Source of the DNA: a virus
Virus record (IMG/VR): IMGVR_UViG_3300008050_000180
Location: 1 to 31,319 of that record
Direction: 5' to 3' (one strand)
DNA: 31,319 bases
Shown here: one piece after another, positions 3 through 31,319 of the stretch
Numbering within the stretch: position 1 is the first letter of the stretch
How the letters are laid out: the number at the start of each line of letters is the position of its first letter
The notes under the pieces: generated by a model
What the model saw: the letters and a program-made list of their open reading frames with translations, nothing else
Database searches by the model: none
What the model was told of the DNA's origin: nothing
Translations under genes and position numbers: made by a program

Positions 3-374
3 CAAGCGTGGGGCTTACTCAAAGAGGACATGAGCAGAGACCCCTCATGGGTCGTAGGGGGCATGAGCGACGACATAGCGTTTGATGGGGAAGCGGATTG
101 TGAGAAACACGTCAGAGAATGGCTAGTCAGTGTCATAGGCTTCATGAGAAACAAAGACCCTTCCGATACAGCAGATAGGGCGTATGACTTCTATGCTAAT
201 GCTCCCTTTCAACACTTAGAGGCACTCTTGAGAAACGAACCCAGTGAGTTGCATGAGAAGGCTTTGGGTATGTTGGAGGACTGCCGCCAAGCGAATCTAG
301 CAGAGCAGACAGGAGATGCTGATAGCAATCTACCCCCTATGCATTTCAGTGAACACATGAGGGATGAAGAATGA
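3..374 (+). CDS. Tagged small accessory protein, 5' end cut by window
   Basis: The open frame runs from base 3 and its first visible residues are QAWGLLKED, so the true start lies just outside the window. By comparison with the next gene it probably began MNPFD. An internal ATG at 30 exists, but using it would discard this conserved motif. The visible 123 residues are acidic and helical with no recognised domain. The C-terminus ends in SEHMRDEE, and a similar string (DMSEHIRGDP) occurs in the 2914-3495 protein. The stop overlaps the next gene's start (ATGA). It belongs to the tag-bearing family described in the findings; its function is unknown. Confidence 0.75.
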   Translation, partial: QAWGLLKEDMSRDPSWVVGGMSDDIAFDGEADCEKHVREWLVSVIGFMRNKDPSDTADRAYDFYANAPFQHLEALLRNEPSELHEKALGMLEDCRQANLAEQTGDADSNLPPMHFSEHMRDEE

Positions 375-859
375 ACCCCTTCGACCAAGCGTGGCTTTTG
401 CTGAAACAGACCCGTCAAAGCACGTTAGGTGAGTATCATCCCGATTTCCCCTCTCCGCACGGTGATGTGATGTGGTATCACGGCACAACAGCAAGACCCT
501 CTTCGATAATCAATCGTGAAGGCTTAACCCCCCAAACACCTAATTATCACAACACATTATCGACAAGGTTGGACCCCTCTTTGCCTTCTCAGTTCCCAAC
601 AGGGGTTTATGCAACAGGTAAATTAAAGGATGCCCAAAGGTACGCTTATGCGAGAGGTCAAGATAGAAACCAATCAAGTCAAGTATATGGGATAAGAGAA
701 GGTGTCTCTGAAACCCCCCAAGACAGACGCCTTAGAGAAATTGGAGAAAGTGCAGGTCGTAACATATCAACTGTCTTAGAAGATGTTAGATTCAGTAATC
801 CAATACCAAGGCAGTATATCACTCCGGTGCCGATTCCTCTAAATCAAAAGACAGTTTAA
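371..859 (+). CDS. ADP-ribosyltransferase-fold protein with N-terminal PFDxAWxLLK tag
   Basis: This 162-residue protein starts with the tag MNPFDQAWLLLKQ. It continues into WYHGTT (residues 35-40), an I-x6-GL-x-P segment and GVYATGKLKDAQRYA (78-92). H-G-T followed by hydrophobic-Y-x-T and A-x-x-YA is the pattern of small ADP-ribosyltransferase/KptA-like proteins, where the His and Tyr contact NAD. H37 and Y80 are the candidate residues. I cannot assign a third catalytic residue; the C-terminal IPRQYITPVPI may form the last strand. If active, it would transfer ADP-ribose to a host or nucleic-acid target. The upstream gene overlaps it by 4 bases. T4 Alt is a known precedent for a head-packaged ADP-ribosyltransferase. 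The fold call is moderately sure and the substrate is unknown. Confidence 0.6.
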   Translation: MNPFDQAWLLLKQTRQSTLGEYHPDFPSPHGDVMWYHGTTARPSSIINREGLTPQTPNYHNTLSTRLDPSLPSQFPTGVYATGKLKDAQRYAYARGQDRNQSSQVYGIREGVSETPQDRRLREIGESAGRNISTVLEDVRFSNPIPRQYITPVPIPLNQKTV

Positions 860-867
860 GTCCGTTT

Positions 868-1710
868 ATGGACTTCAGCATTTACGAAGTGGGACCGAGA
901 GACGGATTACAAAGTAGCGATACTATAACCCCTACTCATAAGAAAGTAGAACTCATTGAGAAGATAGCACAAGTGGGCATTGATAAGATTGAAGTCGGCG
1001 CAATGGTGAATCCCGACAAGGTTCCGAATATGGCTGATAGCGAACTGGTTTTCAGTAGAGTGGCTTGGTTACAATCGCAGTGTGAATTAGGGATGCTTGT
1101 CCCTAATAGGAAAGGCGTAGAAAGAGCAATGGATGTAGGAGTTACCCAATACAATGTCTTCTTTTCGCCGTCTGATTACTTCAATACGAGAAATCATGGA
1201 AGAACCATGTCTCATATCTTCACGTCTTATTGTCACTCTCTTGCCGATGTTCCGAAGGATAACATCAGAGTATATCTCTCCACTTCTTTTGGTTGTCCTA
1301 TTGCAGGCGAGATTCCAAGAAACTTAATGGAGAAGGCGCTCGATTGGGCGGATACATTGGGGTCTACAATTGTTCTATGTGATACGATTGGTAAGGCTAA
1401 CCCTCCTCTTATCACCAAAACGATGGCTTGGACAGAGGAGTTAGACGCTAAGATTGCCCTTCATCTTCATCATGGCAAGAGAAGAGGTAGAATGAAGGAT
1501 AATCTGAGTGCTGCTTTCGATTGTGGCGTGGAACAATTCGATTCTTCAATTGGAGGAATGGGAGGTTGCCCATTCATACCGGGAAGCGGTGGAAATCTCG
1601 CTACTGAAGAATTAGTGATGTGGGGAGAAAAGGAGAATCTGGATTGTGGCGTCTCTCTAAGTGACATGAAGCCGCTCATCAACTATGTGAATAAGGCCAT
1701 CAAGGTCTAA
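868..1710 (+). CDS. Hydroxymethylglutaryl-CoA lyase-like (HMGL/DRE-TIM family) enzyme
   Basis: The 280 residues have the family's usual length and motif order. EVGPRDGLQ (residues 7-15) supplies the catalytic R11 and D12. IEVGAMVNP supplies E42. CDTIG lies at 171-175. H199-x-H201 are the metal ligands. GGMGGCPFIPGSGGN (229-243) contains the catalytic loop cysteine C234 and N243, followed by LATEEL. HMG-CoA lyase cleaves HMG-CoA to acetoacetate and acetyl-CoA; related DRE-TIM enzymes do other aldol-type cleavages or condensations. One oddity is that the residues after H-x-H are HGKRRGR rather than the usual D-T-Y/R-G, so substrate specificity may differ. I see no clear Shine-Dalgarno. It lies between a tagged ADP-ribosyltransferase-like gene and a convergent minus-strand gene, and carries no tag itself. 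It is probably an auxiliary metabolic gene acquired from a host. Confidence 0.88.
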   Translation: MDFSIYEVGPRDGLQSSDTITPTHKKVELIEKIAQVGIDKIEVGAMVNPDKVPNMADSELVFSRVAWLQSQCELGMLVPNRKGVERAMDVGVTQYNVFFSPSDYFNTRNHGRTMSHIFTSYCHSLADVPKDNIRVYLSTSFGCPIAGEIPRNLMEKALDWADTLGSTIVLCDTIGKANPPLITKTMAWTEELDAKIALHLHHGKRRGRMKDNLSAAFDCGVEQFDSSIGGMGGCPFIPGSGGNLATEELVMWGEKENLDCGVSLSDMKPLINYVNKAIKV

Positions 1711-2576
1711 GCGCTTACTCCAACTTGTCCAGTAGTCGTACCGGCTTTGGAACGTGCTTGTTGGGCTACTTGCTGGATTCTATCTTGTTCTTGTTGGCGA
1801 GCCTGTAACTTTGCTTGCGAGCGGGCCTGCATACTTTGTATACCGGCAGAGCCAATTCCTACTCCACCAGTAGCCATCATGCTTTTCTCTTCTCCTGTAA
1901 AAGGCTCTACTGTTTTTGGCAAACTACCCTGTACCGCCGATGGCGTGGTTAGTTCTTGCCTATCAATCTCAGCCTGTAATGCCTGTCTCCTTGCTCCAGC
2001 CATTTGTTGACCAGTGGGAGACGGTGCTGACGGTGCTGACGGTGCTGTATATCCGCTATGTCCTTGAGCATTATCGAACACATTGAGTCGAGTTTGCGTT
2101 GTTGAAGGAGAAGGAGGATTTGTAAGGTTGGTTACTGGTTTTTGAGTGTCAAGGTAACTCTCCCAATTGGTGTGCCCTTCCGGTAGATTTAGCCCCGGAG
2201 TGTTCTGCCCTTGCTTCCATCCTTGAATCTTTACAGGATTATGTGCCACATCCGTATACGGTTTCCCTCTTAGTGCATTTAGGGTATTAGACCCTCCTCC
2301 TTTTGGAACAACGCCTGCTTTTGATGCCGCACGAGCATTTTTTGCAGCGCCTACTCTTCCCATCATTTTTGTTCCAAGTTTTGCTGCTCCTGTTCTACCT
2401 GCTTGTGAGAATAAAGCGCTGGTGAGTATTGGGAGAAATTGTGCCCATTTTTCTATGTCGTCTTTGCTCTTCACAACGAGGATTGGAGGTGTGGCAGCCG
2501 GGAGTCCACCATCAGTCACAAAGGAAGAAGGGGGAGAAGAGACTGCGACCATACCCTGCGAATCTCTCGGCGCCAC
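1707..2576 (-). CDS. Ala/Gln/Ser/Pro-rich putative virion protein, only minus-strand gene
   Basis: This is a 289-residue reading frame on the minus strand. No competing plus-strand gene covers 1711-2638. Its composition is biased: A/G/K-rich near residues 60-95, P/S/T-rich in the middle with a SAPSAPSAPS run, and Q/A/R-rich and helical near the C-terminus. It carries PPILVVKSKDD near residue 35, which resembles the hydrophobic-K sites of the virion proteins. It also carries GGVGIGSAG and a terminal GQVGVSA, which match Gly-Val-Gly strings in other virion candidates here. The stop overlaps the end of the lyase gene tail to tail. The start at 2576 faces the 2645 gene, so 2577-2644 should hold divergent promoters. 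There is no recognisable enzyme domain; a structural or internal virion role is inferred. Confidence 0.65.
   Translation of the reverse strand: MAPRDSQGMVAVSSPPSSFVTDGGLPAATPPILVVKSKDDIEKWAQFLPILTSALFSQAGRTGAAKLGTKMMGRVGAAKNARAASKAGVVPKGGGSNTLNALRGKPYTDVAHNPVKIQGWKQGQNTPGLNLPEGHTNWESYLDTQKPVTNLTNPPSPSTTQTRLNVFDNAQGHSGYTAPSAPSAPSPTGQQMAGARRQALQAEIDRQELTTPSAVQGSLPKTVEPFTGEEKSMMATGGVGIGSAGIQSMQARSQAKLQARQQEQDRIQQVAQQARSKAGTTTGQVGVSA
2021..2047. repeat. 9-bp tandem repeat (x3) inside the minus-strand gene
   Basis: Three perfect copies of acggtgctg encode a Ser-Ala-Pro run on the minus strand. This is a low-complexity coding repeat, probably a flexible linker. Confidence 0.85.
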
Positions 2577-3501: not shown

Positions 3502-4518
3502 GTGTCATCTGTTGCTGTAAGAAAGGCTTGGTACGATTCTACCAACTCCTTGTATGAGGATGATAGTCCCCCTAATACTGGTGAAAACACTCGCCAGACT
3601 AAACTCTACAATTTCGACCCACGAATGGCCCATCCGAAGTATGGGGAAGATTTAGCAGCAATGCGGGCTACCGATGAAGAAGTATTGGGAAGTGGGCTAA
3701 AACCTACAGCGCAACCTCGTCACAATATAGAATGGGAAGAGGGAGTGAGTGAATTACTCGGCTCTAATCCTCGCTATCCAGATGAGGAGATGCATGAAGT
3801 CACACATCATGGTGTGAAGTATTTGATGAGGCCAGATGGGAAAGTTCAGTTCCCCATCAAAGAGGGAGATAAGGGAATATGGCTTACTCGACCTACTGAA
3901 TCAGATGCAAGTCCCGGAGGATTGTTTACACACAGAGACGCTGATAAATTAGTTTTCGTTCGTGGTAAATCTAAGTCATTGCGAGGAATGGGGAGAGCAT
4001 ATGAGCGAAACAGCGATGAGGCGCGAGAGAAGGTAGCAGAGATGTTTCTTCAACGAAAGAAGCCAATAGACCCAGATAGACTTGTCGAAGTGCCTTTACC
4101 TAAAAATAAGCAAATGTGGCAAGTTTTGAGAGATTTAGGGCTTACGGGCGGAACAGATAATCATGGCCGAAGTAAATGGGGTAATAAGGTACCAATTAAG
4201 AAGTTCTTTCCACTTCGAGGAGATGGATTAAACATGGGCGAACCAATGAACATAGCCTACCAGTTGCTCAAAGACCGCAAGTCGCCGGAGGCTTGGGCAC
4301 ACAAGTTGGAGTATGATAAGCAATATCAGAAGAATCCAAAGAGAGTCAAGTATCGTGAGCAATTGAACGCAGAACGTAGGAAGCGTGGCATATACGGCAA
4401 AGGCGGTGGCGATGTTAGCCATACTCAAGGTGGAAAACTGACGTTGGAAAGCCCTCATGCTAATCGAGCGCGACACTTCAAGGGGAAGGGAACACTTCGG
4501 AGAGTGAAGGTGAAATGA
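3502..4518 (+). CDS. Two-part protein: unknown domain, internal tag, HNH-like basic C-terminal domain
   Basis: This is a 338-residue frame. The likely start is GTG 3502, the first start codon after the in-frame TGA; it could instead be the continuation of the upstream protein. Residues 1-240 form an unknown domain. MGEPMNIAYQLLKD (residues 245-258) is the tag. The last 80 residues are basic: EYDKQYQKNPKR, LNAERRKRGIYGKG, GGDVSHTQGGKL and ANRARHFKGKG. That layout resembles small HNH-like/basic proteins of tailed phages, where D-V-x-H is the core, but only one histidine of the nuclease motif is obvious and activity is unsure. ATG 4234 begins the internal tag and has GAGGAG about 11 bases upstream, so a nested product is possible. 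It overlaps the next gene by 4 bases. Confidence 0.65.
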   Translation: MSSVAVRKAWYDSTNSLYEDDSPPNTGENTRQTKLYNFDPRMAHPKYGEDLAAMRATDEEVLGSGLKPTAQPRHNIEWEEGVSELLGSNPRYPDEEMHEVTHHGVKYLMRPDGKVQFPIKEGDKGIWLTRPTESDASPGGLFTHRDADKLVFVRGKSKSLRGMGRAYERNSDEAREKVAEMFLQRKKPIDPDRLVEVPLPKNKQMWQVLRDLGLTGGTDNHGRSKWGNKVPIKKFFPLRGDGLNMGEPMNIAYQLLKDRKSPEAWAHKLEYDKQYQKNPKRVKYREQLNAERRKRGIYGKGGGDVSHTQGGKLTLESPHANRARHFKGKGTLRRVKVK

Positions 4519-4745
4519 GTCCTTTTGACAAAGCGTGGGTCTTATTGAAGAATGTGACTGACCATGATGTCGATATGAGTAACCCAGTCAGTATAGAATC
4601 ATGGAATGAACCGACAACGCCGTGTAGCAAATGCGGCCAATACGGTGCGAACATGCGTATGACATACAACAACAAGTTTGGTACAGATGAGCAAGAAAGG
4701 CATTATTGTGAGACTTGTTATCAGATTTCACATGGGAGAGAATAG
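4515..4745 (+). CDS. Tagged mini zinc-ribbon protein
   Basis: This 76-residue protein begins MSPFDKAWVLLKN (tag). A zinc ribbon follows, with C-S-K-C and C-E-T-C separated by about 30 residues (CSKCGQYG and HYCETCYQ). The four cysteines should bind one zinc ion. The gene starts within the stop of the preceding one and ends one base before the next tagged gene. Such ribbons often bind nucleic acid or proteins; no precise role can be given. Confidence 0.8.
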   Translation: MSPFDKAWVLLKNVTDHDVDMSNPVSIESWNEPTTPCSKCGQYGANMRMTYNNKFGTDEQERHYCETCYQISHGRE

Positions 4746-4746
4746 A

Positions 4747-5052
4747 ATGAATCCCTTCGACCATGCATGGACTTTGCTTAAAGAAGCCGAATGGCATCCC
4801 CCTAATACATTCGATAGTGATGAAATGACGAGGTATCTTCGTTATCATATGAATAATTTTCACGACAAGTTATCAACAGAAGGGCAAGGAGAGGCTGCAT
4901 TTTACATGCAGCAACTAGAGGGTTTCATAAATGCAGCAAATAAAGGGGAAGAGTATTTTGGCTTTATGACTCCTGAGTTTGCAGTTGGACAGATGAATAA
5001 TTTGATTGATAAAGAAGGATTGAAAGATACCCAATTGAGGAATTTAGAATGA
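4747..5052 (+). CDS. Tagged small helical protein
   Basis: The chosen start is ATG 4747, because it gives MNPFDHAWTLLKE, the most typical form of the tag, and follows the previous stop by one base. The longer open frame from 4678 overlaps the zinc-ribbon gene. The 101 residues are acidic and helical (FYMQQLEGFINAANKG, FAVGQMNNLIDKEG) with no recognised domain. It ends the first accessory block, followed by an AT-rich gap. Confidence 0.75.
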   Translation: MNPFDHAWTLLKEAEWHPPNTFDSDEMTRYLRYHMNNFHDKLSTEGQGEAAFYMQQLEGFINAANKGEEYFGFMTPEFAVGQMNNLIDKEGLKDTQLRNLE

Positions 5053-10035: not shown

Positions 10036-11904
10036 ATGGGCAAGATTCTGATTCGTAAAGCACAGGGAACCATGGGAATGGGAACTGGGTCAGACTTGCG
10101 GATATACAATCCGAGAAGTGAATCTTCGACGATGTTTCGTCACAATCATGAAGATGAGGATAGTGTACACTCCCCAGAAGATGGGAAATATCGTGATGAG
10201 AGAACAGCCAAGAAGAAAAAAGAGCGAGAGGATAGGGCCGCCGAATTGAAAAATATCAAACACATTCCTATCAAAACCACTGATTTACATGAAGATGAGG
10301 ACGTGGATGAGGATTTAGAACCGACCAAGTTTGACAGGGAACTCGAACCTTCTCTCATGACTGGAACTCATGGGAACTTCGGCGCCATGACAAGTATGGC
10401 AAATCAAGCGAAAGGGCCGGGTTTTGCTGGAGGCCATGCTTTTGCTATGGGTGAACCAATGGAAATCGCTTTCCAGTTGTTGAAGAGGCAAACGACTTTG
10501 CCCGGTTACGACAGGAAACGTGTAGAGGAAATGGTATCTCCAGAGAATAGTAATATCTGGATTGCTGCTAAACCGGGAAATGAGGAAATCTCATCTGAGC
10601 AGTCCAGCAACCTATCAGATGCAATGCTTCGAGAACTTGCTACACTAAATCGTAATCACGGACCCTTCTCCATAACAAGTGCAACGGGAAATAGTGGCGA
10701 ATGGGGTACGGAACCATCATTTATGCTGACTGGGGTATCTGAAAAGACTCTTCCTCATATTCACGAATTAGCAGATAGATTCGGCCAACAAAGTATAGCG
10801 ATATCTAATGCAAATAGTGAAGCAGCAAGATTTGAAACTCCTCAAGGAAATGTAACTGATGAGTTTACAAGTATGGATTTTAACCCAAATGCAGAGTATT
10901 CCACAGACTTTCCTACCGGTCAAAGATTAGAGTTTAAGAAGAGCGTCATAGTTCTCAAGAGAGATGAGAGAGTGGGATTTGTTGGTAAGAAGCCAAAGAG
11001 AGCAACGGGTGCTAAAGCAAGGAAAGATTACAAGGAGAGAAGTCGTCATTGGCGACCTTCGACTGGCGAGTTCAAACGGCCACCCGGCGGTATGACTCCC
11101 AGTAGTGCTACTGGAAGAAGGGCAAAGTCACGGATGCGAGGTATCAAGAGTGGTAAGAAGACCGGATTGAGTAGGGCTCATCTTGCTGTTGAGATGTCAC
11201 ACCGTGGTGTGAAGACTAAGCAACCTAAATCGAAAGACCCAAGGGCGTATAGGCAATATATGGGACAGCAAGAAGCGAGAAAGCGACTTGGTAATGTCAG
11301 AACAGTGCACGCCACGCCTGCGAGATTCGGAGCACGTTCCTATCGAGCCGGTCCGACTGGTGCCGGAATGTTGCAGAGTCAGTTGCCGGGACAGGCTGCA
11401 GCCGCAAGACAATCAGCCATGAGACGGATAAGGCCACCTCGAATCCCATCAGTAAGAATGCCATCGGTTCCTAACATTCCCGGCGGTGCTCCACCGAGCC
11501 CTCCAATGAGTGTAATGGGACAAGGTGGCGGGCAAATAGGAGTGGGGATGCCCAAACTACCGACTGCGACAGTGCAGGGGGCAGGTCCGGGAATGGTAAT
11601 GACTGGCAAAGTGGGAGTAGGTAGTGATTTGCAGAAGCGGGGACTATCATACTACGACATGGCCGAACTTCGCCAACTCGTCAATGATGCTCGAAGAGCG
11701 ATGAAGCGGAAGGAGACTAAGAAAAAGGGGAAGGGAGACAGAGACACAAGTGGCGGTGGCTCTAATTTACCAAAACATCCAGAGAATGGGCCTAAACAAA
11801 CAACTCGACCCGAAGGTGCTACCGAAGATGCGAATAATGAACCAAGAACATTCGGCTTAGACCCCATAGGCCACTTAGTAGGACGTGGAGGTAGAACTCC
11901 ATGA
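10036..11904 (+). CDS. Multidomain virion-type protein: tag plus DUF3293-like domain, basic linker
   Basis: ATG 10036 has AAGGAGG eight bases upstream, which favours it over the frame opening at 10015. The 622 residues start MGKILIRKAQG. An acidic/basic disordered section follows, then the tag MGEPMEIAFQLLKR (residues about 138-151). Immediately after comes a domain with NIWIAAKPGNEE, ELATLNRNHGPFSIT, GTEPSFMLTGV and ADRFGQQSIAI. The E-P-S-F-x-x-x-G and R-F-G-Q-x-A/S patterns match DUF3293. Next is SVIVLKRDERVG, then a Lys/Arg-rich region, a P/G/M-rich linker (GQIGVGMPK, GKVGVGSDLQKRG) and a Lys-rich tail. It looks like a structural carrier with an embedded cargo domain. Confidence 0.7.
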   Translation: MGKILIRKAQGTMGMGTGSDLRIYNPRSESSTMFRHNHEDEDSVHSPEDGKYRDERTAKKKKEREDRAAELKNIKHIPIKTTDLHEDEDVDEDLEPTKFDRELEPSLMTGTHGNFGAMTSMANQAKGPGFAGGHAFAMGEPMEIAFQLLKRQTTLPGYDRKRVEEMVSPENSNIWIAAKPGNEEISSEQSSNLSDAMLRELATLNRNHGPFSITSATGNSGEWGTEPSFMLTGVSEKTLPHIHELADRFGQQSIAISNANSEAARFETPQGNVTDEFTSMDFNPNAEYSTDFPTGQRLEFKKSVIVLKRDERVGFVGKKPKRATGAKARKDYKERSRHWRPSTGEFKRPPGGMTPSSATGRRAKSRMRGIKSGKKTGLSRAHLAVEMSHRGVKTKQPKSKDPRAYRQYMGQQEARKRLGNVRTVHATPARFGARSYRAGPTGAGMLQSQLPGQAAAARQSAMRRIRPPRIPSVRMPSVPNIPGGAPPSPPMSVMGQGGGQIGVGMPKLPTATVQGAGPGMVMTGKVGVGSDLQKRGLSYYDMAELRQLVNDARRAMKRKETKKKGKGDRDTSGGGSNLPKHPENGPKQTTRPEGATEDANNEPRTFGLDPIGHLVGRGGRTP

Positions 11905-14285: not shown

Positions 14286-14893
14286 TGGGGAAAGTCATGG
14301 TCATTAGGAAAGAAGCAGGAACAGCGTCTGCTGTTGGTGGTGGCGGTGGCAGTGTAGGAGTCGGATTGGGCGGTGGTGGCCTGATGTTCATGTTGGGGCA
14401 AGGCAGAACGATGACGCCGGAACAATTGGCAGATGCCGGATTTGGAGAAATCGGAAGCGATAGACACAATAGAGCACTCCGTATGCAGCGAATAGGTCAT
14501 GCAGCAAGATATGGCGCCGCAGGATTAGGTGCATTCAATGCACTCTATAATCAGACTTCAAGCGGCCAGCCGGGAATTGGGGGAGCCATGGCAACCGGTG
14601 CGATGAGCGGATATGCTGGAACTGCTGGTGCAGAAGATATAGCAGCACGAATGGGACAGCGCTTTGGAAGAAAATTAGACGATAAAGTGTATCATGATGA
14701 TTTTGTTGAGGGGCCAGAGGTCGCATCTCCATCTCCAGAGCCACTGATGATTACAGAAGGTTATGCAGAGATGACCCCCGAAGAGGCATCGTGGCAATAT
14801 ATGCAAAACGTTCACGCTGGGGCAGCAGAAGATTTTCCTGAGACTGAGGAAGAGAGACTGAATAGAGATGCAAGGAGTTACGATTGGTCATGA
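14285..14893 (+). CDS. Glycine-rich small virion-type protein
   Basis: ATG 14285 overlaps the previous stop. The 202 residues begin MGKVMVIRKEAG, which closely parallels MGKILIRKAQG of the 10036 gene. A Gly/Val zipper-like segment follows (GGSVGVGLGGGGLMFMLG), then TPEQLADAGFGEIG and an Ala/Gly-rich helical stretch. The C-terminus is acidic. It may be a membrane-active or packing protein of the virion. It overlaps the terminase start (TCATGAG). Confidence 0.65.
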   Translation: MGKVMVIRKEAGTASAVGGGGGSVGVGLGGGGLMFMLGQGRTMTPEQLADAGFGEIGSDRHNRALRMQRIGHAARYGAAGLGAFNALYNQTSSGQPGIGGAMATGAMSGYAGTAGAEDIAARMGQRFGRKLDDKVYHDDFVEGPEVASPSPEPLMITEGYAEMTPEEASWQYMQNVHAGAAEDFPETEEERLNRDARSYDWS

Positions 14894-16368
14894 GTAATGA
14901 GCAGATGGACGCCTTCATCCTGAATATGGATAGAGAGATGTGCAAGAAGTCATTCAAGTATTTCTTCGTAGATATCCTTGGTTTCCTATACAATCACCAT
15001 CATGACGATTGGCGGAAGGGATTAGAAGAGTCACAATACTACTGCGTGAAAGCATCTCGTGACCACGGTAAATCCGTCTTCTTCATGTCGTATGCGCTAT
15101 GGCTTGCTGCATTCAATCCCGGCAAACACGTTATGGTTTTCTCTCACTCACTTGAGCAGACGCTTGAGCATATGAGATTTATTCGCAATCTGATAGAGGG
15201 AAATGACATCCTTAGACATTTGAAGCCAGAGGGCAAGCCTTGGGCGAAATCTTACTTCGAGTTTTCTAATGGTAGCCGTATGATGGCAAAGTCAGTTGGT
15301 GGAGCAACTCGTGGATTCCACCCCGATATTGTCGTTTGTGACGATATTCTCTGGGGAACGACTGCTTCTGAATTGGCTAAGACGGCCGATTGGTTCTACG
15401 GCGTTCTCCTTCCGGTTCTCCATCACACGAGTAAATTGATGATGGTTGGCACGCCATTTAGTTACAATGACTTGTATGCGGAATTAGAGCAGAAGGAGAC
15501 ATTTAGAGTAGAGACTTATCCTGCAATTGATGCTGAAGGAATTGCTCTTTGGCCTGAGCGTTGGGATTTAGAAGCCTTAGATTTGAGGCGCATGTCGATG
15601 CCAGCAATTCAGTTTACGCGAGAATATCTCTGTGAGCCTATTCACGATGTAGCAAGTATGTTCCCGATGCCTTTGTTGGAGCAAGCAAGAGACACTGATT
15701 TGGTTCTGATAGACAGGGCCGAAACTAATTACAACGAAGAAGGAGAGGCAGATGGTGTCTTCGGACAGCACTTCATAGGTCACGACCCTGCGATAGCATC
15801 TGATAAGAATGCTGATTTTACTGCGATGACTGTTATGCGTATCAAACCCGATGAGGAGAAGAAGGAGATAATCCACGTCGTTCACGAAAGAGGAATGTCC
15901 TCAGTAGCACAAAAGAGGATGATGGTGATGCTCAATAGTAAGTTTCAACCTGAACTTATCGAACTTGAGGGAAATAACTTCCAAAGAATGCTTGAGCAAG
16001 AGATGAGAGAACTTAGGGCGGATATGCCTATTCGAGTATTCATGACTACGCGCACGCGTAAGGAGAGTTTGTTCATGTCTCTCCTTCTTGCATTTGAGCA
16101 AGGACACATTAAAACTCCATATGGCGATGAGAGAAGTAAGAAATACACTCATGCTCTTGAGCAGGAACTCAATCGTTTCGGTATGCAGAAGAGTGGTAAG
16201 TTAGAGAGCGTAGGCGTGCACGATGACTTAGCGATGAGTATAGCACTCGCAAATTGGGCATCTAAGGAGTTTAAGGGAAGTGTAATGCTCTTGGATGATT
16301 ATATGCCCGGTTTCGATAGTTGGGTAAGTGGGGATGGCAATAATACAGGGAGTTGGATGATACCATGA
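14890..16368 (+). CDS. terL: Terminase large subunit (ATPase and nuclease)
   Basis: ATG 14890 overlaps the previous stop. The 492 residues contain the Walker A-like KASRDHGKSVFF (residues about 54-65) and Walker B DIVVCDDI (146-153), followed by the motif III-like MMVGTPFSYND. The C-terminal RNase H-type nuclease has IGHDPAIASDKNADF with acidic D299, ELIELEGNNF with E359, and GVHDDLAMS with D444/D445. It packages DNA into proheads at the portal vertex and cuts concatemers. Length and motif order are normal for tailed viruses. Confidence 0.95.
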   Translation: MSNEQMDAFILNMDREMCKKSFKYFFVDILGFLYNHHHDDWRKGLEESQYYCVKASRDHGKSVFFMSYALWLAAFNPGKHVMVFSHSLEQTLEHMRFIRNLIEGNDILRHLKPEGKPWAKSYFEFSNGSRMMAKSVGGATRGFHPDIVVCDDILWGTTASELAKTADWFYGVLLPVLHHTSKLMMVGTPFSYNDLYAELEQKETFRVETYPAIDAEGIALWPERWDLEALDLRRMSMPAIQFTREYLCEPIHDVASMFPMPLLEQARDTDLVLIDRAETNYNEEGEADGVFGQHFIGHDPAIASDKNADFTAMTVMRIKPDEEKKEIIHVVHERGMSSVAQKRMMVMLNSKFQPELIELEGNNFQRMLEQEMRELRADMPIRVFMTTRTRKESLFMSLLLAFEQGHIKTPYGDERSKKYTHALEQELNRFGMQKSGKLESVGVHDDLAMSIALANWASKEFKGSVMLLDDYMPGFDSWVSGDGNNTGSWMIP

Positions 16369-16431: not shown

Positions 16432-17574
16432 ATGGGCATTTTTCCAGATAATGGAGACGGTTGGTTTGAAGCCAATCTTGGTTTTTCAGCATCTGAATTA
16501 GTGAAGCGTCTAAAGAAAGCCAGAAGGCACAATAAACAAGATAAGGATTTCATAGACAAAGCAATAGATGATATTAGAGCGTTGAAAATTATGGAAGTTG
16601 ATGCTACATTGAAGGTGCATGATTGGAGTGAACCCTATTCTGATACTATCAAGGAATTAGGACTTACTGACCGTAATATGAAAGCACTCAGAAAGTTTGG
16701 AGAGTCAAGGAGTATTACTCTTCAAAGGGCTTGTCGCCAATGGGATAATGCAGATGATACACTTAAGATGCTCGAAGAATATGAAGATGTATGGGGCGAT
16801 TCGGAAAAGAAGGCTTGGGTAGAAGCGATGGATGCCAAAAGAGATGCCAGATTGATATGGAAGACTGCACTTCATCAGATAGAAAGACTAACCGATAAAG
16901 AGAAGGAAACACTTGTCAAAAGTGCTGAGATTCTACAAAGTAAAGGCCCAATGACAGGAAGGATGATTTTTGAAAACTTATCTGAAAAGAAGATTCTCCA
17001 TAAGAGTATGACGTCCATGAAATTAGCAAAATTACTCTCAATGTATGGTGAGGAGATTGATATTATTGGAGGAGCAGGAAGAGGGACTTTTGTCAAGATG
17101 GATAAGACCGGTCTCATTATCAAAGACCCATGGGCGTATGCTGCTGGATTCCTCGATGCCGATGGCTATATCACAATTACAAAGAGAGGTGAGCCTCGCG
17201 CTGGTTTCATAGCGACAGGGAATAGAGGTAAGATACATTGCGAACAACTGCAGAAAACTTTGGATTGCGGTATACTACAGTTGGACCAAAAGGTGTATAG
17301 CGACAATCAACGCAGTCAGCATCGCCTTCAGTTCTATTCTAAAGCGGATATAGCAAAACTATTGAAAGGAGTCCTGCCATTCTTACAAATGAAAACAACT
17401 CAAGCAAAAGCGGTGCTTGCATTCATAGAAGAGAGAGATAGTCTGAAGAAAGACGAATTGAAGAAAGTAGTAAGGTATAGCAATTGGAGTGACGATACCA
17501 ATAAGGCTAATGCCCTACTGGCCGAGTGGGGTATAGAGGCCGACCAAGTGAATAAGTGGGCGGAGGCGATTTGA
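16432..17574 (+). CDS. LAGLIDADG-type domain protein with winged-helix-like region
   Basis: This is a 380-residue protein. The N-terminal 130 residues are helical and charged. Residues about 165-223 look like a winged helix (KGPMTGRMIFENLSEKKI, MKLAKLLSMYG, then a GRGTFVKMD wing). From about 230, DPWAYAAGFLDADGYITI carries one LAGLIDADG motif with the acidic residues intact. The end is helical. One motif suggests it acts as a dimer, like homing endonucleases, or as a non-nuclease DNA binder, as in WhiA. It is inserted between terminase and portal, where HNH nucleases often sit. It starts 63 bases after the terminase stop and overlaps the portal start by one base. Confidence 0.7.
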   Translation: MGIFPDNGDGWFEANLGFSASELVKRLKKARRHNKQDKDFIDKAIDDIRALKIMEVDATLKVHDWSEPYSDTIKELGLTDRNMKALRKFGESRSITLQRACRQWDNADDTLKMLEEYEDVWGDSEKKAWVEAMDAKRDARLIWKTALHQIERLTDKEKETLVKSAEILQSKGPMTGRMIFENLSEKKILHKSMTSMKLAKLLSMYGEEIDIIGGAGRGTFVKMDKTGLIIKDPWAYAAGFLDADGYITITKRGEPRAGFIATGNRGKIHCEQLQKTLDCGILQLDQKVYSDNQRSQHRLQFYSKADIAKLLKGVLPFLQMKTTQAKAVLAFIEERDSLKKDELKKVVRYSNWSDDTNKANALLAEWGIEADQVNKWAEAI

Positions 17575-19373
17575 TGGCAGAAGATGAAGAAACTGGAATA
17601 CGTGGTTTTCTCAGGAGGGTTTCGGCTCCATTCAGAAGTCGAACTACACCTGAACCGCAGATGCCGCTCTATACTACTGGTATACAGGAACCAGTCTTAG
17701 CGCAGGGTATTACACTACCCGCGCTATATGCGGTCACGCACGAGAATCTCATACTGCGAACAGTCATTTCTAAGTTAGCGCAGGAGATATTCAGACGAGG
17801 CTACTATTGGGAAAAGAAGTTTCAGCACAAGTGTATGGACTGTGGTGAGGAATATAAGAATGAAGTAGAACAATGTAATCTATGTGGCGGGCAATTGAAG
17901 ACGCCAGATGTAAATCAACTAATCTATCCTAAATGGCTTCTTGAGCAGCAAAATTCGATGGAACAGAACTTCATGCACATAATGGCTGAGATTGAGAAAG
18001 ACCTCAATATAGTGGATGATGCATTCTTGATTTGCGTTAAGGAATACTTCGTAGACCCTGAGACATCAGATATGAAGTTCTATCGAGTAAAGGAAATCAT
18101 CAGAGGCGACCCGATATTCATGAGAATCATCTCAGATAAGCGCGGAGTTCGTGGTGGTAGATACAAGGTATGTCCTCTCCATCGTGACCAAGTTTCCTAT
18201 CCCGGACAAGACGAGAAATGCCAAGTCTGTGGAAATAACATGCAGGAAGCCCACTATGCCAATATGGCAGGAAGTGGGAAGACACAGTATTATCTGGAAG
18301 GAGAGGTTCTCCATATCAGTAAATACAATCCATCCAAGTTGTATGGTAAGAGCCCAGTTAATACCATGTGGCGACAAGCCATGACTTTGACGGCAATGGA
18401 TAATTACATGTATACAGCATATCAGAAGAGAAGGAGTCCGAAAGGAATCATATCTGTTACCACTGATAATCTTGAATCAATGAAGTCATTTTGGAAGACT
18501 GTTGATGAGAAAATGGAGCGTGACCCACATTACATACCAAAAGTTGGCATAGAGAGTCAGACTGGAAGAGGTGGAGTGAATTGGGTTAAGTTCATGGACA
18601 CTCTTGAGGAAATGCAGTATATTTCAGTTAGAGATGAGATGAGGAATCGTATAGCCGCTTTCTTTGGTGTAAGTAGCATTTTCATGATTGACAGTGGTAA
18701 GAGTGGCGGTTTGAATAACGAGGGAATGCAGATTCTTGTAACTAATCGGGCTGTAGAGTTTGGTCAGAAAGTCTACACTGACGTGCTTTTCCCTCGTATG
18801 CTCAAAGAAATGGACGTTACAGATTGGAAACTTACTCTCTATCCTAATGAGGAAGAGGATGAAATTACTCGTTTGCGACGAGACGAGATGGAAGTGAACC
18901 TCGCTCAGAGGATGATGATGCTTGGCTACAAACCAGAACTTATGGAGGAAGGCGACAGAGACATACGCTTTACTTATCGTCAAATGGACCCCCAGCAGGA
19001 TGGCGCAGCGCCAATGCCGCCGGGAATGACACCACCGCAAGGAATGCCGCCCGGCACTGGAATGATGCCTAATGGAATGATGCCGCCGGGAATGGCACAA
19101 CGTGGAGGAATGCCACATGGAGGAATGCCACATGGAGGAATGTCACCCGGTATGCCACCCGGTATGCCACTCAATCAGATAATGCCGCCATCACAACCCG
19201 GAGGAGAGGGAATGGGAATAAGAACGCCAAGAGGACCAGCCTCGCCACAAAGTCGAACATCTTTCGGTATAGGCTCCCCTGTTTCATCAGTTCAACAGAG
19301 GGGACCACAGAACTCATTAGCGCAGGATAATAGTCGTGCTCTACTAAACGCAAGACGAATAAAGGGCGCGTAA
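17574..19373 (+). CDS. Portal protein with two inserted zinc-binding knuckles
   Basis: ATG 17574 overlaps the previous stop. The 599 residues follow the portal pattern of GLRR-type N-terminus, a conserved body with HISKYNPSKLYGKSPVNTMW, ENLESMKSFWKTVDEKM-like helices and RIAAFFGVSSIFMID. It forms the dodecameric ring at the packaging vertex. Two zinc sites are unusual: C87-x2-C90-x10-C101-x2-C104, and C200-x2-H203-x12-C216-x2-C219. The C-terminal 110 residues are Met/Pro/Gly-rich repeats, probably disordered. It lies between the LAGLIDADG gene and small head proteins, as expected for a portal after terminase. Confidence 0.88.
   Translation: MAEDEETGIRGFLRRVSAPFRSRTTPEPQMPLYTTGIQEPVLAQGITLPALYAVTHENLILRTVISKLAQEIFRRGYYWEKKFQHKCMDCGEEYKNEVEQCNLCGGQLKTPDVNQLIYPKWLLEQQNSMEQNFMHIMAEIEKDLNIVDDAFLICVKEYFVDPETSDMKFYRVKEIIRGDPIFMRIISDKRGVRGGRYKVCPLHRDQVSYPGQDEKCQVCGNNMQEAHYANMAGSGKTQYYLEGEVLHISKYNPSKLYGKSPVNTMWRQAMTLTAMDNYMYTAYQKRRSPKGIISVTTDNLESMKSFWKTVDEKMERDPHYIPKVGIESQTGRGGVNWVKFMDTLEEMQYISVRDEMRNRIAAFFGVSSIFMIDSGKSGGLNNEGMQILVTNRAVEFGQKVYTDVLFPRMLKEMDVTDWKLTLYPNEEEDEITRLRRDEMEVNLAQRMMMLGYKPELMEEGDRDIRFTYRQMDPQQDGAAPMPPGMTPPQGMPPGTGMMPNGMMPPGMAQRGGMPHGGMPHGGMSPGMPPGMPLNQIMPPSQPGGEGMGIRTPRGPASPQSRTSFGIGSPVSSVQQRGPQNSLAQDNSRALLNARRIKGA
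19104..19145 (+). repeat. 15-bp tandem repeat in portal tail
   Basis: Unit ggaggaatgccacat is repeated twice perfectly and once with changes. It encodes Gly-Gly-Met-Pro-His. It is followed by two copies of an acccggtatgcc-like unit. This is a low-complexity coding repeat. Confidence 0.8.
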
Positions 19374-26356: not shown

Positions 26357-27736
26357 ATGATTAGTGTGCTCGGTAGTAAACAACTGTTCAGACATGACGA
26401 TGAGTCAATCGCCATCCTCAAGGGTGGTAACGACCTCATTGTCGCTGGCTACGCAAGCGTGGAAGTTGTAGACAAGCAAGGCGACGTAATAACAAAGGAG
26501 GCATTAAAGGACGCATTTCGTAAGTTCATGGAAAACCCATCTTACAGAAACGTTCAATTAGCGCACTCCAATATACAAGTAGGCGACGTAGTACCAAGTT
26601 ACACAGATAATGAAGGGAGGTTGTGGAAAAGCGAAGTCGATGATGTCGGGATGTTTGTAGTAGTACAACTCCGTAACGACATCGAGAAGGCCAAGGAAGT
26701 CTCAGCAGAGATTAGAAAAGGCGTTCTCAGAGGATTCAGTATCGGTGGTCAAGCGTTCAAAAGGGATAGAAAATCAGACCCAAAAAGAGGCGACTACCAA
26801 GAAATAAGCAAACTGGAACTTCATGAAATAACGATTTGTGAAAAAGGCATCAACCCCGAAGCAACATTCAGCATTCTAAAAGAAGATACGGAAGTGAACA
26901 ATATGACAACAGAAAACGACGAAAACGATATGACAAAGCAACTGGGCGACGTTCTAACGCGCTTGGAATCACGTTTGGACGGTATGGAAAAGGGCGAGAA
27001 GCCTGCTTTCCTTGAAGACAAGAAGGACGATGACGACAAGAAGGACGACAAGAAGAAAGAGGCGGCGGAGATAACTGAGGAGCCAGTGGAGAAATCCAAT
27101 GAGTTCTCAGATGTCATTACATCCGATTACTTGAATTGGATGGAAGACACTCTGAAGAGTGGCGGTGTGGACACAGGAGCCGCACGCGCACACTTTGATG
27201 GTCTGGAAAAGGCTAACCTCGGTTCCACTCCAGAAGAGATGGCCTCTAACGACCTCCAGCGAACTGGACAGGTTAAGGGACGCGTGCAGGAAGGTGGCAA
27301 GCCTTCAACTAACGCACTCGGTAAGACTACTGGTAGTGGCAAGGTTGCGAAGTCTGACTTCATCGACCCTCGTTCACTAACGGACTCAGACATTGAGGCC
27401 GCTTACGAAGTTTACAAGGCTGCAGCCCTTGAGAACGAACTACGTGGAAGCCTCGAAGAGCAGTTCTCTACACGCTACACGCACGAGAGGCAGTCCGAGA
27501 TTGCCAAGGCAGAGGCAGCAGCATTCGATGCACGCAGCCCACTTGAGGCTATTCAGAAGTCCATCGAGGCACTTGGAGAGCGCATTGACGGACTTACTAC
27601 ATCAGCAGAAGCAGGAGAAGATTTCAAGAAGTCCGAGAGCGCCACTGGAATAGTGGTTCCTTCGACTGAGGATTTGGCACTAATGTCTTGGGACGAGGTT
27701 CATCAACTGGCCGATAAGACATTGAGCCCGGAGTGA
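26357..27736 (+). CDS. Prohead protease (S78-type) fused to scaffold
   Basis: This is a 459-residue protein. Residues 1-175 match HK97-type prohead proteases: VAGYASVEVVDKQGD, NVQLAHSN with catalytic-type H70, RGFSIGG with S128, and LELHEIT followed by GINPEATF. After FSILKEDTE (171-179) comes a linker rich in Asp/Lys (DDKKDDKKKEA), then a helical acidic scaffold region. It ends MSWDEVHQLADKTLSPE, like the C-terminus of the 115-residue protein. It would organise the prohead and then cleave the scaffold and capsid protein. ILKGG (20-24) and SILKED sit at domain borders and may be its own cut sites. ATG 26904 could give a free scaffold. Confidence 0.88.
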   Translation: MISVLGSKQLFRHDDESIAILKGGNDLIVAGYASVEVVDKQGDVITKEALKDAFRKFMENPSYRNVQLAHSNIQVGDVVPSYTDNEGRLWKSEVDDVGMFVVVQLRNDIEKAKEVSAEIRKGVLRGFSIGGQAFKRDRKSDPKRGDYQEISKLELHEITICEKGINPEATFSILKEDTEVNNMTTENDENDMTKQLGDVLTRLESRLDGMEKGEKPAFLEDKKDDDDKKDDKKKEAAEITEEPVEKSNEFSDVITSDYLNWMEDTLKSGGVDTGAARAHFDGLEKANLGSTPEEMASNDLQRTGQVKGRVQEGGKPSTNALGKTTGSGKVAKSDFIDPRSLTDSDIEAAYEVYKAAALENELRGSLEEQFSTRYTHERQSEIAKAEAAAFDARSPLEAIQKSIEALGERIDGLTTSAEAGEDFKKSESATGIVVPSTEDLALMSWDEVHQLADKTLSPE

Positions 27737-27754
27737 GAATCCACAATACAAAAT

Positions 27755-27775
27755 AGGAGATGAAGAAAAATGGCA
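27755..27775 (+). promoter_or_regulatory. Strong ribosome-binding leader of the capsid gene
   Basis: aggagatgaagaaaaATGGCA precedes the major capsid protein. The same 21 bases occur before the 28975 gene. AGGAG is complementary to the 16S rRNA tail, followed by a purine-rich spacer. It marks the capsid protein and the next gene for high expression. Confidence 0.75.
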
Positions 27776-28936
27776 CGAAACTACGTACGAACAATAACTG
27801 ACATGGAGCGCTATTACTATGGCGCAGGGAACGCAATGGGGTATTCTTACTCCGGTAGTGAACTACTCAAGGCAGACAGCCCAATGCTGTCTACCACTGG
27901 TGGAACTTACCAAGCAATTTATGGACGCAAAGTCTGGTCGCAACTGAACCAAGAGTTCAACGCTTTCAGTATTCTACCCAAGAAGCCTTGGGACCGAAGT
28001 GGATGGCGCGTAATCACTGGTCGCCCCAATTCGGGCACTCTACACGGTGGAGTTGCAGAGAACGCAACACTACCTGAGACAGTCAAGCCGACTTTCCAGC
28101 ACGTTGCTGCAAAGCCTAAGACTATCGCACACACCTTTGATATGTCCGAGACAGCGATTTTCCTCGCTGACAAGGATGATGGCCTCGGAGATATCCGCTC
28201 GGTCATGAAGGAAGAAATGGGCAAACATCACGCTGAGATGGTGAACAAGATGCTTTGTACCGATGTCGACACACCTGCTGCTAACAACTTCGAGTCCTTG
28301 GACCGAGTTACAGCAGCATACAGCAACAACGCAACTACCACAACTGGTCTGGTTAATGGTCACGACAATCTAAGCGCTGACTCTGACCTCGACATATACA
28401 GTATCGACAGGAGTGCAAACTCATGGTCGAACGCTGAGATGAGCAACAACGCAGTGAGCAATGTCTCAACTGACAGAGTTCTTTCTCTCGACTTGATTGA
28501 CGAGATGTTCCAGAAACTCTGGGTCCGTGGTGGTAACCCCAAGGTTATGCTAACCGGATATGACACACTAATGCGCCTGCAGCAACTATTGCAGAGCCAG
28601 CAAAGGTTCATGGAAGAGAAGAGAGTCACCCCCACCTACAACGGTGTAAAGGGTGTTCCGGGAATGGAAGCCGGATTTATCGTGGCTACCTACAACGGAG
28701 TCCCAATTATCCCAACCAAGAACATGCTGACGGATTCTATCAGTCGCGTTTACTTCTTAGATACAGATTACCTGCACTTTAGCACAGCAATACCGACCCA
28801 ATACTTCGAGTCGGGAATTGAGACCGGCGACCCCTTCGCCATCAACAGGCTGGGTCAAGAAGGACTCTACCGAACAATGGGCGAGATTTGGACCACTTTC
28901 TTTGGGTCACAAGGAAGTCTGAGGGACTTGAAGTGA
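27770..28936 (+). CDS. Major capsid protein (HK97 fold)
   Basis: The 388 residues directly follow the protease/scaffold, as in HK97-type gene order. The text is typical of this fold: GRKVWSQLNQEFNAFSILPK, GWRVITGRP, a central variable region with Asn/Ser/Thr, then NPKVMLTGYDTLMRLQQLL, MEAGFIVATYNGVPI and VYFLDTDYLHF. Residues 31-38 (ELLKADSP) resemble the protease's SILKED site, so the mature protein may start near residue 35. It self-assembles into the icosahedral shell. Many codons look adapted for strong expression, matching the strong leader. Confidence 0.9.
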   Translation: MARNYVRTITDMERYYYGAGNAMGYSYSGSELLKADSPMLSTTGGTYQAIYGRKVWSQLNQEFNAFSILPKKPWDRSGWRVITGRPNSGTLHGGVAENATLPETVKPTFQHVAAKPKTIAHTFDMSETAIFLADKDDGLGDIRSVMKEEMGKHHAEMVNKMLCTDVDTPAANNFESLDRVTAAYSNNATTTTGLVNGHDNLSADSDLDIYSIDRSANSWSNAEMSNNAVSNVSTDRVLSLDLIDEMFQKLWVRGGNPKVMLTGYDTLMRLQQLLQSQQRFMEEKRVTPTYNGVKGVPGMEAGFIVATYNGVPIIPTKNMLTDSISRVYFLDTDYLHFSTAIPTQYFESGIETGDPFAINRLGQEGLYRTMGEIWTTFFGSQGSLRDLK

Positions 28937-30356: not shown

Positions 30357-30656
30357 ATGTCCAAGTTCGAGTTACAAACACTTGATATTGACGACATCAG
30401 CAGAGCAGCCAAGCAAAATGTTCGTGCAGACATTAAATACGACAACCAGAAAATCAATACCGATGCTCCGCTAAAGGGCATCACTAAGAAGCAGAGGGCG
30501 AGAACCTCTGATATCGCAGACATACTCGATATTGGTGCTGGCACACGCTGTGCTCACTGTGGTATGCTTCACTTTCTATGGAGGGCTACTTGTGGCGCTT
30601 GCGAAAGGCCTATGAAATATAACCTCGGAAGCCGTAATGAGGAGGCGAGGTTATGA
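30357..30656 (+). CDS. Zinc-ribbon protein at end of head cluster
   Basis: ATG 30357 is chosen; the frame is open from a TTG at 30351. The 99 residues are basic and polar for the first 60, then RCAHCGM and ATCGACERP form a C-x2-C / C-x2-C zinc ribbon. The pairs are close together, so the ribbon is compact. It overlaps the next tagged gene by ATGA. Confidence 0.7.
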   Translation: MSKFELQTLDIDDISRAAKQNVRADIKYDNQKINTDAPLKGITKKQRARTSDIADILDIGAGTRCAHCGMLHFLWRATCGACERPMKYNLGSRNEEARL

Positions 30657-31319
30657 ATGAGTTTGACTTAGCATGGACCATCTTGAAGGGACTCCCCGAA
30701 CAACAGATGTTTATAGAAGATTCAACACCTCCTAAAATGATGAACCAAAATAGGAGAATTAGTAGAATGGGAACAGTCAATCCTGCAATTGAGGGTATGT
30801 TATCAAGAGAGTGGTCTAATCATCCAGATTGGGGTGATAAACGTCCTAATTTAAGAATTAATTCAGAGGCAGCCCCAAATTACAAAGGGGATAGTTTATT
30901 GGATTGGACTCATTCCATAATTGATGGTTCTCAAGGACTACATGAAAAATGGTATCCGGGTAAAAAACGAGGAGCGTGGGGAACTGAGGGAGAAGATGTA
31001 GCGTATGACGATACTCCAAGACGCAACTCAACTCAAGATATTATTAACCAATATGACCCGAAAAAGCATGGAAACGATATTGACCAGTATATGGCTGAGA
31101 ATGACCCATCTACACGAAGAAAACTGGAAGAAGAGGAAGAAACAAGAAAAAGAGGTGAACAAGAAACTCAAGATAATTTCAAAAATCTTCTTCAAGAATA
31201 TGAACCGGAGCAATTTTTGGACCATCCTGACGGCTTAACTCCTATTCAAAGACAAAGAAGTAGATTAGAAGACATGGCTCGTGAGTTAGCAATGGCTCGC
31301 GGTATGCCTGACCCTCGTA
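30653..31319 (+). CDS. Tagged protein, 3' end cut by window
   Basis: ATG 30653 overlaps the previous stop. The frame stays open to the window end (222 codons). It begins MNEFDLAWTILKG, a tag variant with Glu at the Pro position. The rest is hydrophilic and acidic/basic: a D/N/P-rich middle, then a charged helical part (RRKLEEEEETRKRGEQETQD), likely a coiled coil. No domain is recognised in the visible part. It shows that tagged genes continue beyond this edge. Confidence 0.75.
   Translation, partial: MNEFDLAWTILKGLPEQQMFIEDSTPPKMMNQNRRISRMGTVNPAIEGMLSREWSNHPDWGDKRPNLRINSEAAPNYKGDSLLDWTHSIIDGSQGLHEKWYPGKKRGAWGTEGEDVAYDDTPRRNSTQDIINQYDPKKHGNDIDQYMAENDPSTRRKLEEEEETRKRGEQETQDNFKNLLQEYEPEQFLDHPDGLTPIQRQRSRLEDMARELAMARGMPDPR

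What the first reader, a model, noticed from the sequence alone, without database searches (positions are those of the whole stretch)
868..1710. HMG-CoA-lyase-like enzyme in a viral genome
The catalytic motifs (R11, D12, E42, H199, H201, C234, N243) are all present, so it is probably an active aldolase-type lyase. Such a gene is unexpected in a tailed virus. It could feed acetyl-CoA/acetoacetate metabolism, or divert HMG-CoA from archaeal isoprenoid lipid synthesis, since HMG-CoA is the mevalonate-pathway precursor. The altered loop after H-x-H may indicate another substrate.
Basis: partly seen in the sequence, partly recalled or inferred. Interest (0 to 1): 0.75.

Follow-up and report, generated by a model that had tools for sequence, protein, structure and literature searches.

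The report
HMG-CoA lyase-like enzyme of archaeal viruses
A tailed virus of marine archaea carries a conserved relative of HMG-CoA lyase, an enzyme its predicted hosts appear to lack although they make the substrate for their membrane lipids; such genes were already annotated in this virus group, but all viral copies form one old family with a changed active-site loop.

Summary
In detail: ORF 868-1710 (+) is an intact 280-aa protein of the HMG-CoA lyase branch of the DRE-TIM metallolyases. All seven named residues are present, the AlphaFold model matches HMG-CoA lyases best (Z 36-38, against 28.7 or less for synthases), and purifying selection is strong (dN/dS 0.03-0.05). It is not a chimera, since three syntenic relatives exist in other viral contigs. 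It is not unexpected either. More than 100 IMG/VR contigs carry such genes, 44 of 50 tested share the HVTV-type capsid protein of magroviruses, and the ICTV Aoguangviridae profile and Xu et al. 2023 already list HMG-CoA lyase. New here: viral copies form one clade (support 100/100), and none of 106 keeps the H-x-H-[DN]-T motif found in 22 of 23 cellular relatives. The presumed Poseidoniales hosts lack the enzyme (0 of 244 genomes over cut-off) but encode HMG-CoA synthase and reductase, and show no acetoacetate-activating enzymes (0 of 25). Best reading: a virus-specific acyl-CoA lyase that cleaves host HMG-CoA, draining the mevalonate pathway. The substrate is inferred; a related substrate is a serious rival. 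Prevalence is patchy (9 of 22 MCP-bearing contigs).

The parts
868..1710 (+). HMG-CoA-lyase-like protein, 280 aa. Metal and catalytic residues R11, D12, E42, H199, H201, C234, N243; GGMGGCPF active-site Cys loop; R134-x-Y136-x-S138
1462..1503 (+). codons 199-212 (HLHHGKRRGRMKDN): H-x-H metal ligands followed by the lineage-specific loop that replaces the cellular H-x-H-[DN]-T motif
371..859 (+). 162-aa ORF ending 8 bases before the lyase start, probably co-transcribed; N-terminal MNPFDQAWLLLK tag shared with many viral proteins; function unknown
1707..2576 (-). convergent 289-aa ORF overlapping the lyase stop by 4 bases; a homologue lies in the same place and strand in all 7 loci that hold it; no Pfam, PHROG or NCBIfam match
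14884..16368 (+). terminase large subunit (viral context)
17556..19373 (+). portal protein (viral context)
26357..27736 (+). prohead protease, peptidase S78 family (viral context)
27770..28936 (+). major capsid protein, phrog_24667; about 33% identical to haloarchaeal HCTV-5/HVTV-1

Best explanation
The gene encodes a virus-specific member of the HMG-CoA-lyase branch of the DRE-TIM metallolyases. It is a divalent-metal-dependent TIM barrel that breaks the C-C bond of a 3-hydroxy-3-methylglutaryl-CoA-like acyl-CoA by retro-Claisen cleavage. Shown by computation: fold, active-site residues, selection, a single viral clade, and wide occurrence in magrovirus-type viruses. Inferred: that it is active; that HMG-CoA is the substrate; and that in the infected archaeon it turns the host's HMG-CoA into acetyl-CoA plus acetoacetate. 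Host HMG-CoA synthase plus viral lyase would form a Lynen (ketogenic) shunt that the host lacks on its own. Because the host also seems unable to reactivate acetoacetate, the effect would be to recover acetyl-CoA and CoA and to shut off mevalonate-derived membrane-lipid synthesis, rather than to complete leucine degradation. The changed post-H-x-H loop may alter the rate, the regulation or the exact acyl group accepted.
For: Sequence: PF00682 6.9e-26. NF004283 HMG-CoA lyase 200.8 bits against 40.5 or less for all synthase models; two viral relatives pass the 246-bit cut-off, L066 at 259 and L082 at 257.9. Structure: pLDDT 94.5, pTM 0.92; HMG-CoA lyases Z 36-38 over nearly full length, next best isopropylmalate and citramalate synthases at most 28.7. 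Catalytic residues conserved in a clade with pairwise identities down to 31%. dN/dS 0.029-0.047. Viral clade 100/100 with the loop columns left out. Host side: HMG-CoA synthase match in 24 of 25 Poseidoniales (L390, NF041302 2.8e-83); HMG-CoA reductase match in 25 of 25 (L391 is class II, TIGR00532 439.8 bits, over its cut-off); HMG-CoA lyase over cut-off in 0 of 244 Poseidoniales; the viral profile finds nothing in 116 Thermoplasmatota at 1e-25, although it scores bacterial and human HMGL at 1e-62 to 1e-80. No SCOT-type transferase and no acetoacetyl-CoA synthetase in 25 of 25. No other CoA-ester enzyme among 51 proteins scanned from the 102-kb sister genome.
Against: None of 106 viral proteins keeps the H-x-H-[DN]-T motif that 22 of 23 cellular relatives have, so the substrate or chemistry may differ. 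The window protein falls below the curated HMG-CoA lyase cut-off. No conserved metabolic partner gene lies beside it. The gene is missing from some near-complete relatives: 5 of 8 MCP contigs of 90 kb or more have it. The host is assigned from literature on the virus group, not shown for this contig.
Confidence: 0.5

Rival explanations
1. An active lyase of the same branch, but with a different acyl-CoA substrate (for example a citramalyl-, methylmalyl- or other 3-hydroxyacyl-CoA), as the lineage-wide loop change suggests.
For: 0 of 106 viral proteins keep H-x-H-[DN]-T; viral clade on its own long stem, not inside the leucine-operon HMGLs; several cellular relatives called HMGL sit beside CoA-transferase genes rather than methylcrotonyl-CoA carboxylase genes, so the family name covers more than one reaction.
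Against: All seven catalytic and metal residues, the R-x-Y-x-S motif and the GGCP Cys loop are kept; best structural and profile matches are HMG-CoA lyases; HMG-CoA is an expected metabolite of the presumed host, while no other suitable acyl-CoA was identified.
Confidence: 0.3
2. An auxiliary gene that completes host leucine degradation, as annotated by Xu et al. 2023 (PMC10160649).
For: HMGL is the last step of leucine catabolism; KEGG-based annotation in PMC10160649.
Against: Host genomes show neither HMGL nor SCOT or acetoacetyl-CoA synthetase; no leucine-pathway partner gene in the virus. The upstream host steps were not tested.
Confidence: 0.08
3. Bacterial contamination, a chimeric assembly, or a decaying passenger gene.
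For: Two of the three hits in the phage collection look like such contamination (Acinetobacter chromosomal DNA).
Against: Syntenic copies in three other viral contigs, strong purifying selection, a virus-only clade, 44 of 50 HMGL contigs with the same MCP family, GC like that of neighbouring genes.
Confidence: 0.02
4. A catalytically altered scaffold or regulatory protein that only binds acyl-CoA.
For: The loop change next to the metal site is clade-wide; fast divergence, median 42% identity against 78% for the MCP.
Against: Metal ligands, Arg, Asp, Glu and Cys stay essentially invariant over that divergence.
Confidence: 0.08

Closest known systems
HMG-CoA lyase (HMGCL/MvaB/YngG; human 2cw6, B. 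subtilis 1ydo, Acinetobacter 6nds)
   Same: TIM-barrel fold (Z 36-38), catalytic R/D/E/H/H/C/N set, GGCP Cys loop, 26-31% structure-based identity
   Different: H-x-H-[DN]-T-x-G replaced by H-x-H-H/E plus a lineage-specific loop; a separate 100/100 clade; 280 aa without the C-terminal extension of many cellular enzymes; stand-alone in a virus
HMG-CoA lyase noted as an auxiliary gene of Aoguangviridae/Magrovirales (PMC10768690; PMC10160649)
   Same: Same virus order by MCP and replication genes; very probably the same gene family
   Different: Those reports name the gene by annotation only; the loop change, viral monophyly and absence from host genomes are not in the passages read. The ICTV exemplar genomes were not held here, so direct orthology was not tested
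Isopropylmalate, citramalate and homocitrate synthases (DRE-TIM Claisen condensing enzymes)
   Same: Superfamily fold and metal site
   Different: Window protein scores 40.5 bits or less on their models, Z 28.7 or less; the host's own 419-aa protein of this type (L232) is only distantly related

Membership tests
HMG-CoA lyase (cellular HMGCL/MvaB family) | HMGL-like TIM-barrel domain (PF00682) | tested here: met
   6.9e-26; model Z 36-38 to HMG-CoA lyases
HMG-CoA lyase (cellular HMGCL/MvaB family) | Catalytic and metal residues R, D, E, H-x-H, C, N | tested here: met
HMG-CoA lyase (cellular HMGCL/MvaB family) | H-x-H-[DN]-T motif present in 22 of 23 cellular relatives | tested here: not met
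   0 of 106 viral proteins
HMG-CoA lyase (cellular HMGCL/MvaB family) | Score over the NCBIfam NF004283 cut-off (246 bits) | tested here: not met
   window 200.8 bits; viral relatives L066 259 and L082 257.9 do pass
HMG-CoA lyase (cellular HMGCL/MvaB family) | Phylogenetic position among cellular HMG-CoA lyases | tested here: inconclusive
   Viral proteins form one separate clade, 100/100; unrooted tree, 23 cellular rows
HMG-CoA lyase (cellular HMGCL/MvaB family) | Metal-dependent cleavage of HMG-CoA to acetyl-CoA and acetoacetate | not testable with these tools
   needs an enzyme assay
Isopropylmalate/citramalate/homocitrate synthases | Curated model score over cut-off | tested here: not met
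   window protein at most 40.5 bits against cut-offs of 413 or more
Magrovirales (virus group) | HVTV-related HK97 MCP with PolB, clamp loader, ligase and chaperonin replication/folding set | tested here: met
   MCP; 102-kb sister genome with identical MCP has PolB, AAA/clamp-loader-type ATPase, DNA ligase, ERCC4 and Cpn60
Magrovirales (virus group) | Host in Poseidoniales | not tested
   taken from literature on the order (PMC10768690, PMC12451623); no tRNA in the window to link it to a host

The most novel reading that the evidence does not exclude
A virus-specific class of retro-Claisen acyl-CoA lyases with a rebuilt active-site loop installs a ketogenic (Lynen) shunt in archaea that lack it, so that infection drains HMG-CoA from archaeal lipid synthesis: viral control of membrane-lipid supply.
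Probability: 0.35. Interest if true: 0.8.

Novelty: new variant of a known kind. Interest (0 to 1): 0.5.

Why it matters
[quoted passage not shown] If the viral enzyme cleaves their HMG-CoA, viruses would be acting on the entry step of archaeal membrane-lipid synthesis with an activity the host does not have. That is a metabolic takeover rather than a boost of a host pathway, and it can be tested with one purified protein. The clade also offers more than 100 natural variants of an active-site loop otherwise nearly fixed in this enzyme family.

Tried and rejected
Chimera or contamination: rejected by synteny and relatives. The phage-collection hits: H1/H2 look like Acinetobacter chromosomal DNA, H3 is a canonical cellular-type lyase. 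Co-divergence of lyase and MCP: Mantel r 0.126, not significant (maximum of 2000 permutations 0.26), so strict vertical co-inheritance is not shown. Conserved metabolic partner genes: none found; neighbours are terminase, portal, chaperonin or unknown proteins. ICTV exemplar genomes ON649702, OR863078 and PP497039 are not held; Philosof 2017, Zhou 2023 and Prabhu 2025 are not held. No open-access paper found on the role of the residues after H-x-H.

Full report
Observation. The window is a 31,319-base IMG/VR virus record. ORF 868-1710 (+) encodes 280 aa. It matches Pfam HMGL-like (6.9e-26) and, among NCBIfam models, HMG-CoA lyase NF004283 at 200.8 bits, with all synthase models at 40.5 bits or less. 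The surrounding genes are viral: terminase, portal, S78 protease and an MCP that resembles haloarchaeal siphoviruses HCTV-5 and HVTV-1 at about 33% identity. Copies at 98, 97 and 68% identity lie in three other viral contigs in the same gene context. dN/dS against the two closest is 0.029 and 0.047.

How widespread. These scans select for canonical motifs, so 106 near-complete viral proteins is a lower bound and not a random sample. Of 50 of these contigs, 44 carry the same MCP family, phrog_24667. In the other direction, among contigs found by MCP alone, 9 of 22 of at least 52 kb and 5 of 8 of at least 90 kb encode the lyase. So it is common but not universal, in line with a published remark that magrovirus auxiliary genes are sporadic (PMC10160649). 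MCP and lyase distances do not correlate significantly; the lyase diverges much faster (median identity 42% against 78%).

Virus and host. The 102-kb sister contig with an identical MCP carries PolB, AAA/clamp-loader-type ATPase, ATP-dependent DNA ligase, ERCC4 nuclease, SNF2 helicase and a Cpn60 chaperonin, which fits the ICTV description of Aoguangviridae, order Magrovirales (PMC10768690). That profile names HMG-CoA lyase as an auxiliary gene, and Xu et al. list HMGCL under leucine degradation. Presence of the gene in this group is thus already known. Poseidoniales as host is taken from that literature and was not shown for this contig.

Host metabolism. Using an 18-base marine group II 16S probe (recalled from memory; its hits are nearly all titled Poseidoniales, marine group II or Euryarchaeota), Poseidoniales genomes were reached. 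None of 244 has an HMG-CoA lyase over the model cut-off; the only matches are weak, about 30 bits or less, and the one checked is a longer synthase-like protein. The viral profile found nothing at 1e-25 in 116 Thermoplasmatota, while it recognises bacterial and human HMGL at 1e-62 to 1e-80. HMG-CoA synthase models match in 24 of 25 and HMG-CoA reductase models in 25 of 25 Poseidoniales; one example of each was checked against NCBIfam, and the reductase is class II and over its cut-off. No SCOT-type CoA transferase and no acetoacetyl-CoA synthetase was found in 25 genomes at the strict limits used. Many genomes are incomplete, but a consistent absence over 244 is hard to explain that way.

Structure and phylogeny. 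AlphaFold2 with 17 diverse viral sequences gave pLDDT 94.5 and pTM 0.92. All eight HMG-CoA lyase entries lead the PDB comparison (Z 36.1-38.0); isopropylmalate and citramalate synthases follow at 28.7 or less. In a tree of 34 viral and 23 cellular-type proteins, with the post-H-x-H loop columns removed, viral proteins form one side of a 100/100 branch (the earlier 64-row tree agrees). The cellular sample is small, mostly plasmid-borne bacterial genes, and the tree is unrooted, so the donor is unknown and a cellular member inside the viral clade cannot be excluded.

The loop. Cellular relatives read H-x-H-[DN]-T (22 of 23; the exception reads HLHNADG). None of 106 viral proteins does; most read HLHH or HLHE, followed by a loop of variable length and composition. 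In the window's closest relatives the loop is HHG-[KP]-R-x-x-R-M, with a basic character. From general knowledge, the Thr at this place is catalytic in pyruvate carboxylase; its role in HMG-CoA lyase was not established here. This is the strongest sequence reason to doubt an ordinary HMG-CoA lyase.

Mechanism. The best-supported reading is an active metal-dependent acyl-CoA lyase that acts in the infected cell on host HMG-CoA. Since the host appears to make HMG-CoA as a lipid precursor and cannot obviously use acetoacetate, the likely effect is to drain the mevalonate pathway and release acetyl-CoA and CoA. Shown: fold, residues, selection, clade, host gene content. Inferred: activity, substrate, direction and benefit. 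The main rival is the same chemistry on another acyl-CoA. Leucine degradation is less likely, though the upstream host steps were not tested.

Genomic setting. The lyase starts 8 bases after ORF 371-859 and overlaps by 4 bases the convergent ORF 1707-2576, whose homologues occupy the same position in all 7 loci that hold it. In other lineages the lyase lies close to terminase, portal or chaperonin genes. No metabolic partner recurs, so a stand-alone action on a host metabolite is the simplest reading.

Verdict. A real, conserved, virus-specific variant of a known enzyme kind, in a virus group for which the gene had already been annotated. The added interest lies in the clade-wide loop change and the mismatch with host gene content.

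Noticed in passing
window 371-406, 4237-4272, 4515-4550, 4747-4782, 10450-10485, 30653-30688; many loci, e.g. the 960-aa ORF of L135: Recurrent peptide M-x-P-F-[DN]-x-A-[WF]-x-L-L-K: 177 copies in ORFs around the lyase in 59 viral loci against 0.6 expected by shuffling, 95 of them at or near protein N-termini, some proteins with 2-4 internal copies (GEPMDIAFQLLK). It may be a capsid-targeting or processing tag of magroviruses, but this is untested.
   Followed up: partly
window 1707-2576 (-): Convergent ORF without any family match, conserved opposite the lyase in the closest viral relatives.
   Followed up: partly
CAKLQH020000001.1 and CAKLQF020000001.1 (L021): Records named Acinetobacter phage MD-2021a contain a stretch that looks like bacterial chromosome (CoA-transferase, lyase, catalase, transcriptional regulators).
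   Followed up: partly
L011:1035-17579 (102-kb sister contig): A single ORF of about 5,500 aa in the sister virus genome; not examined.
   Followed up: no
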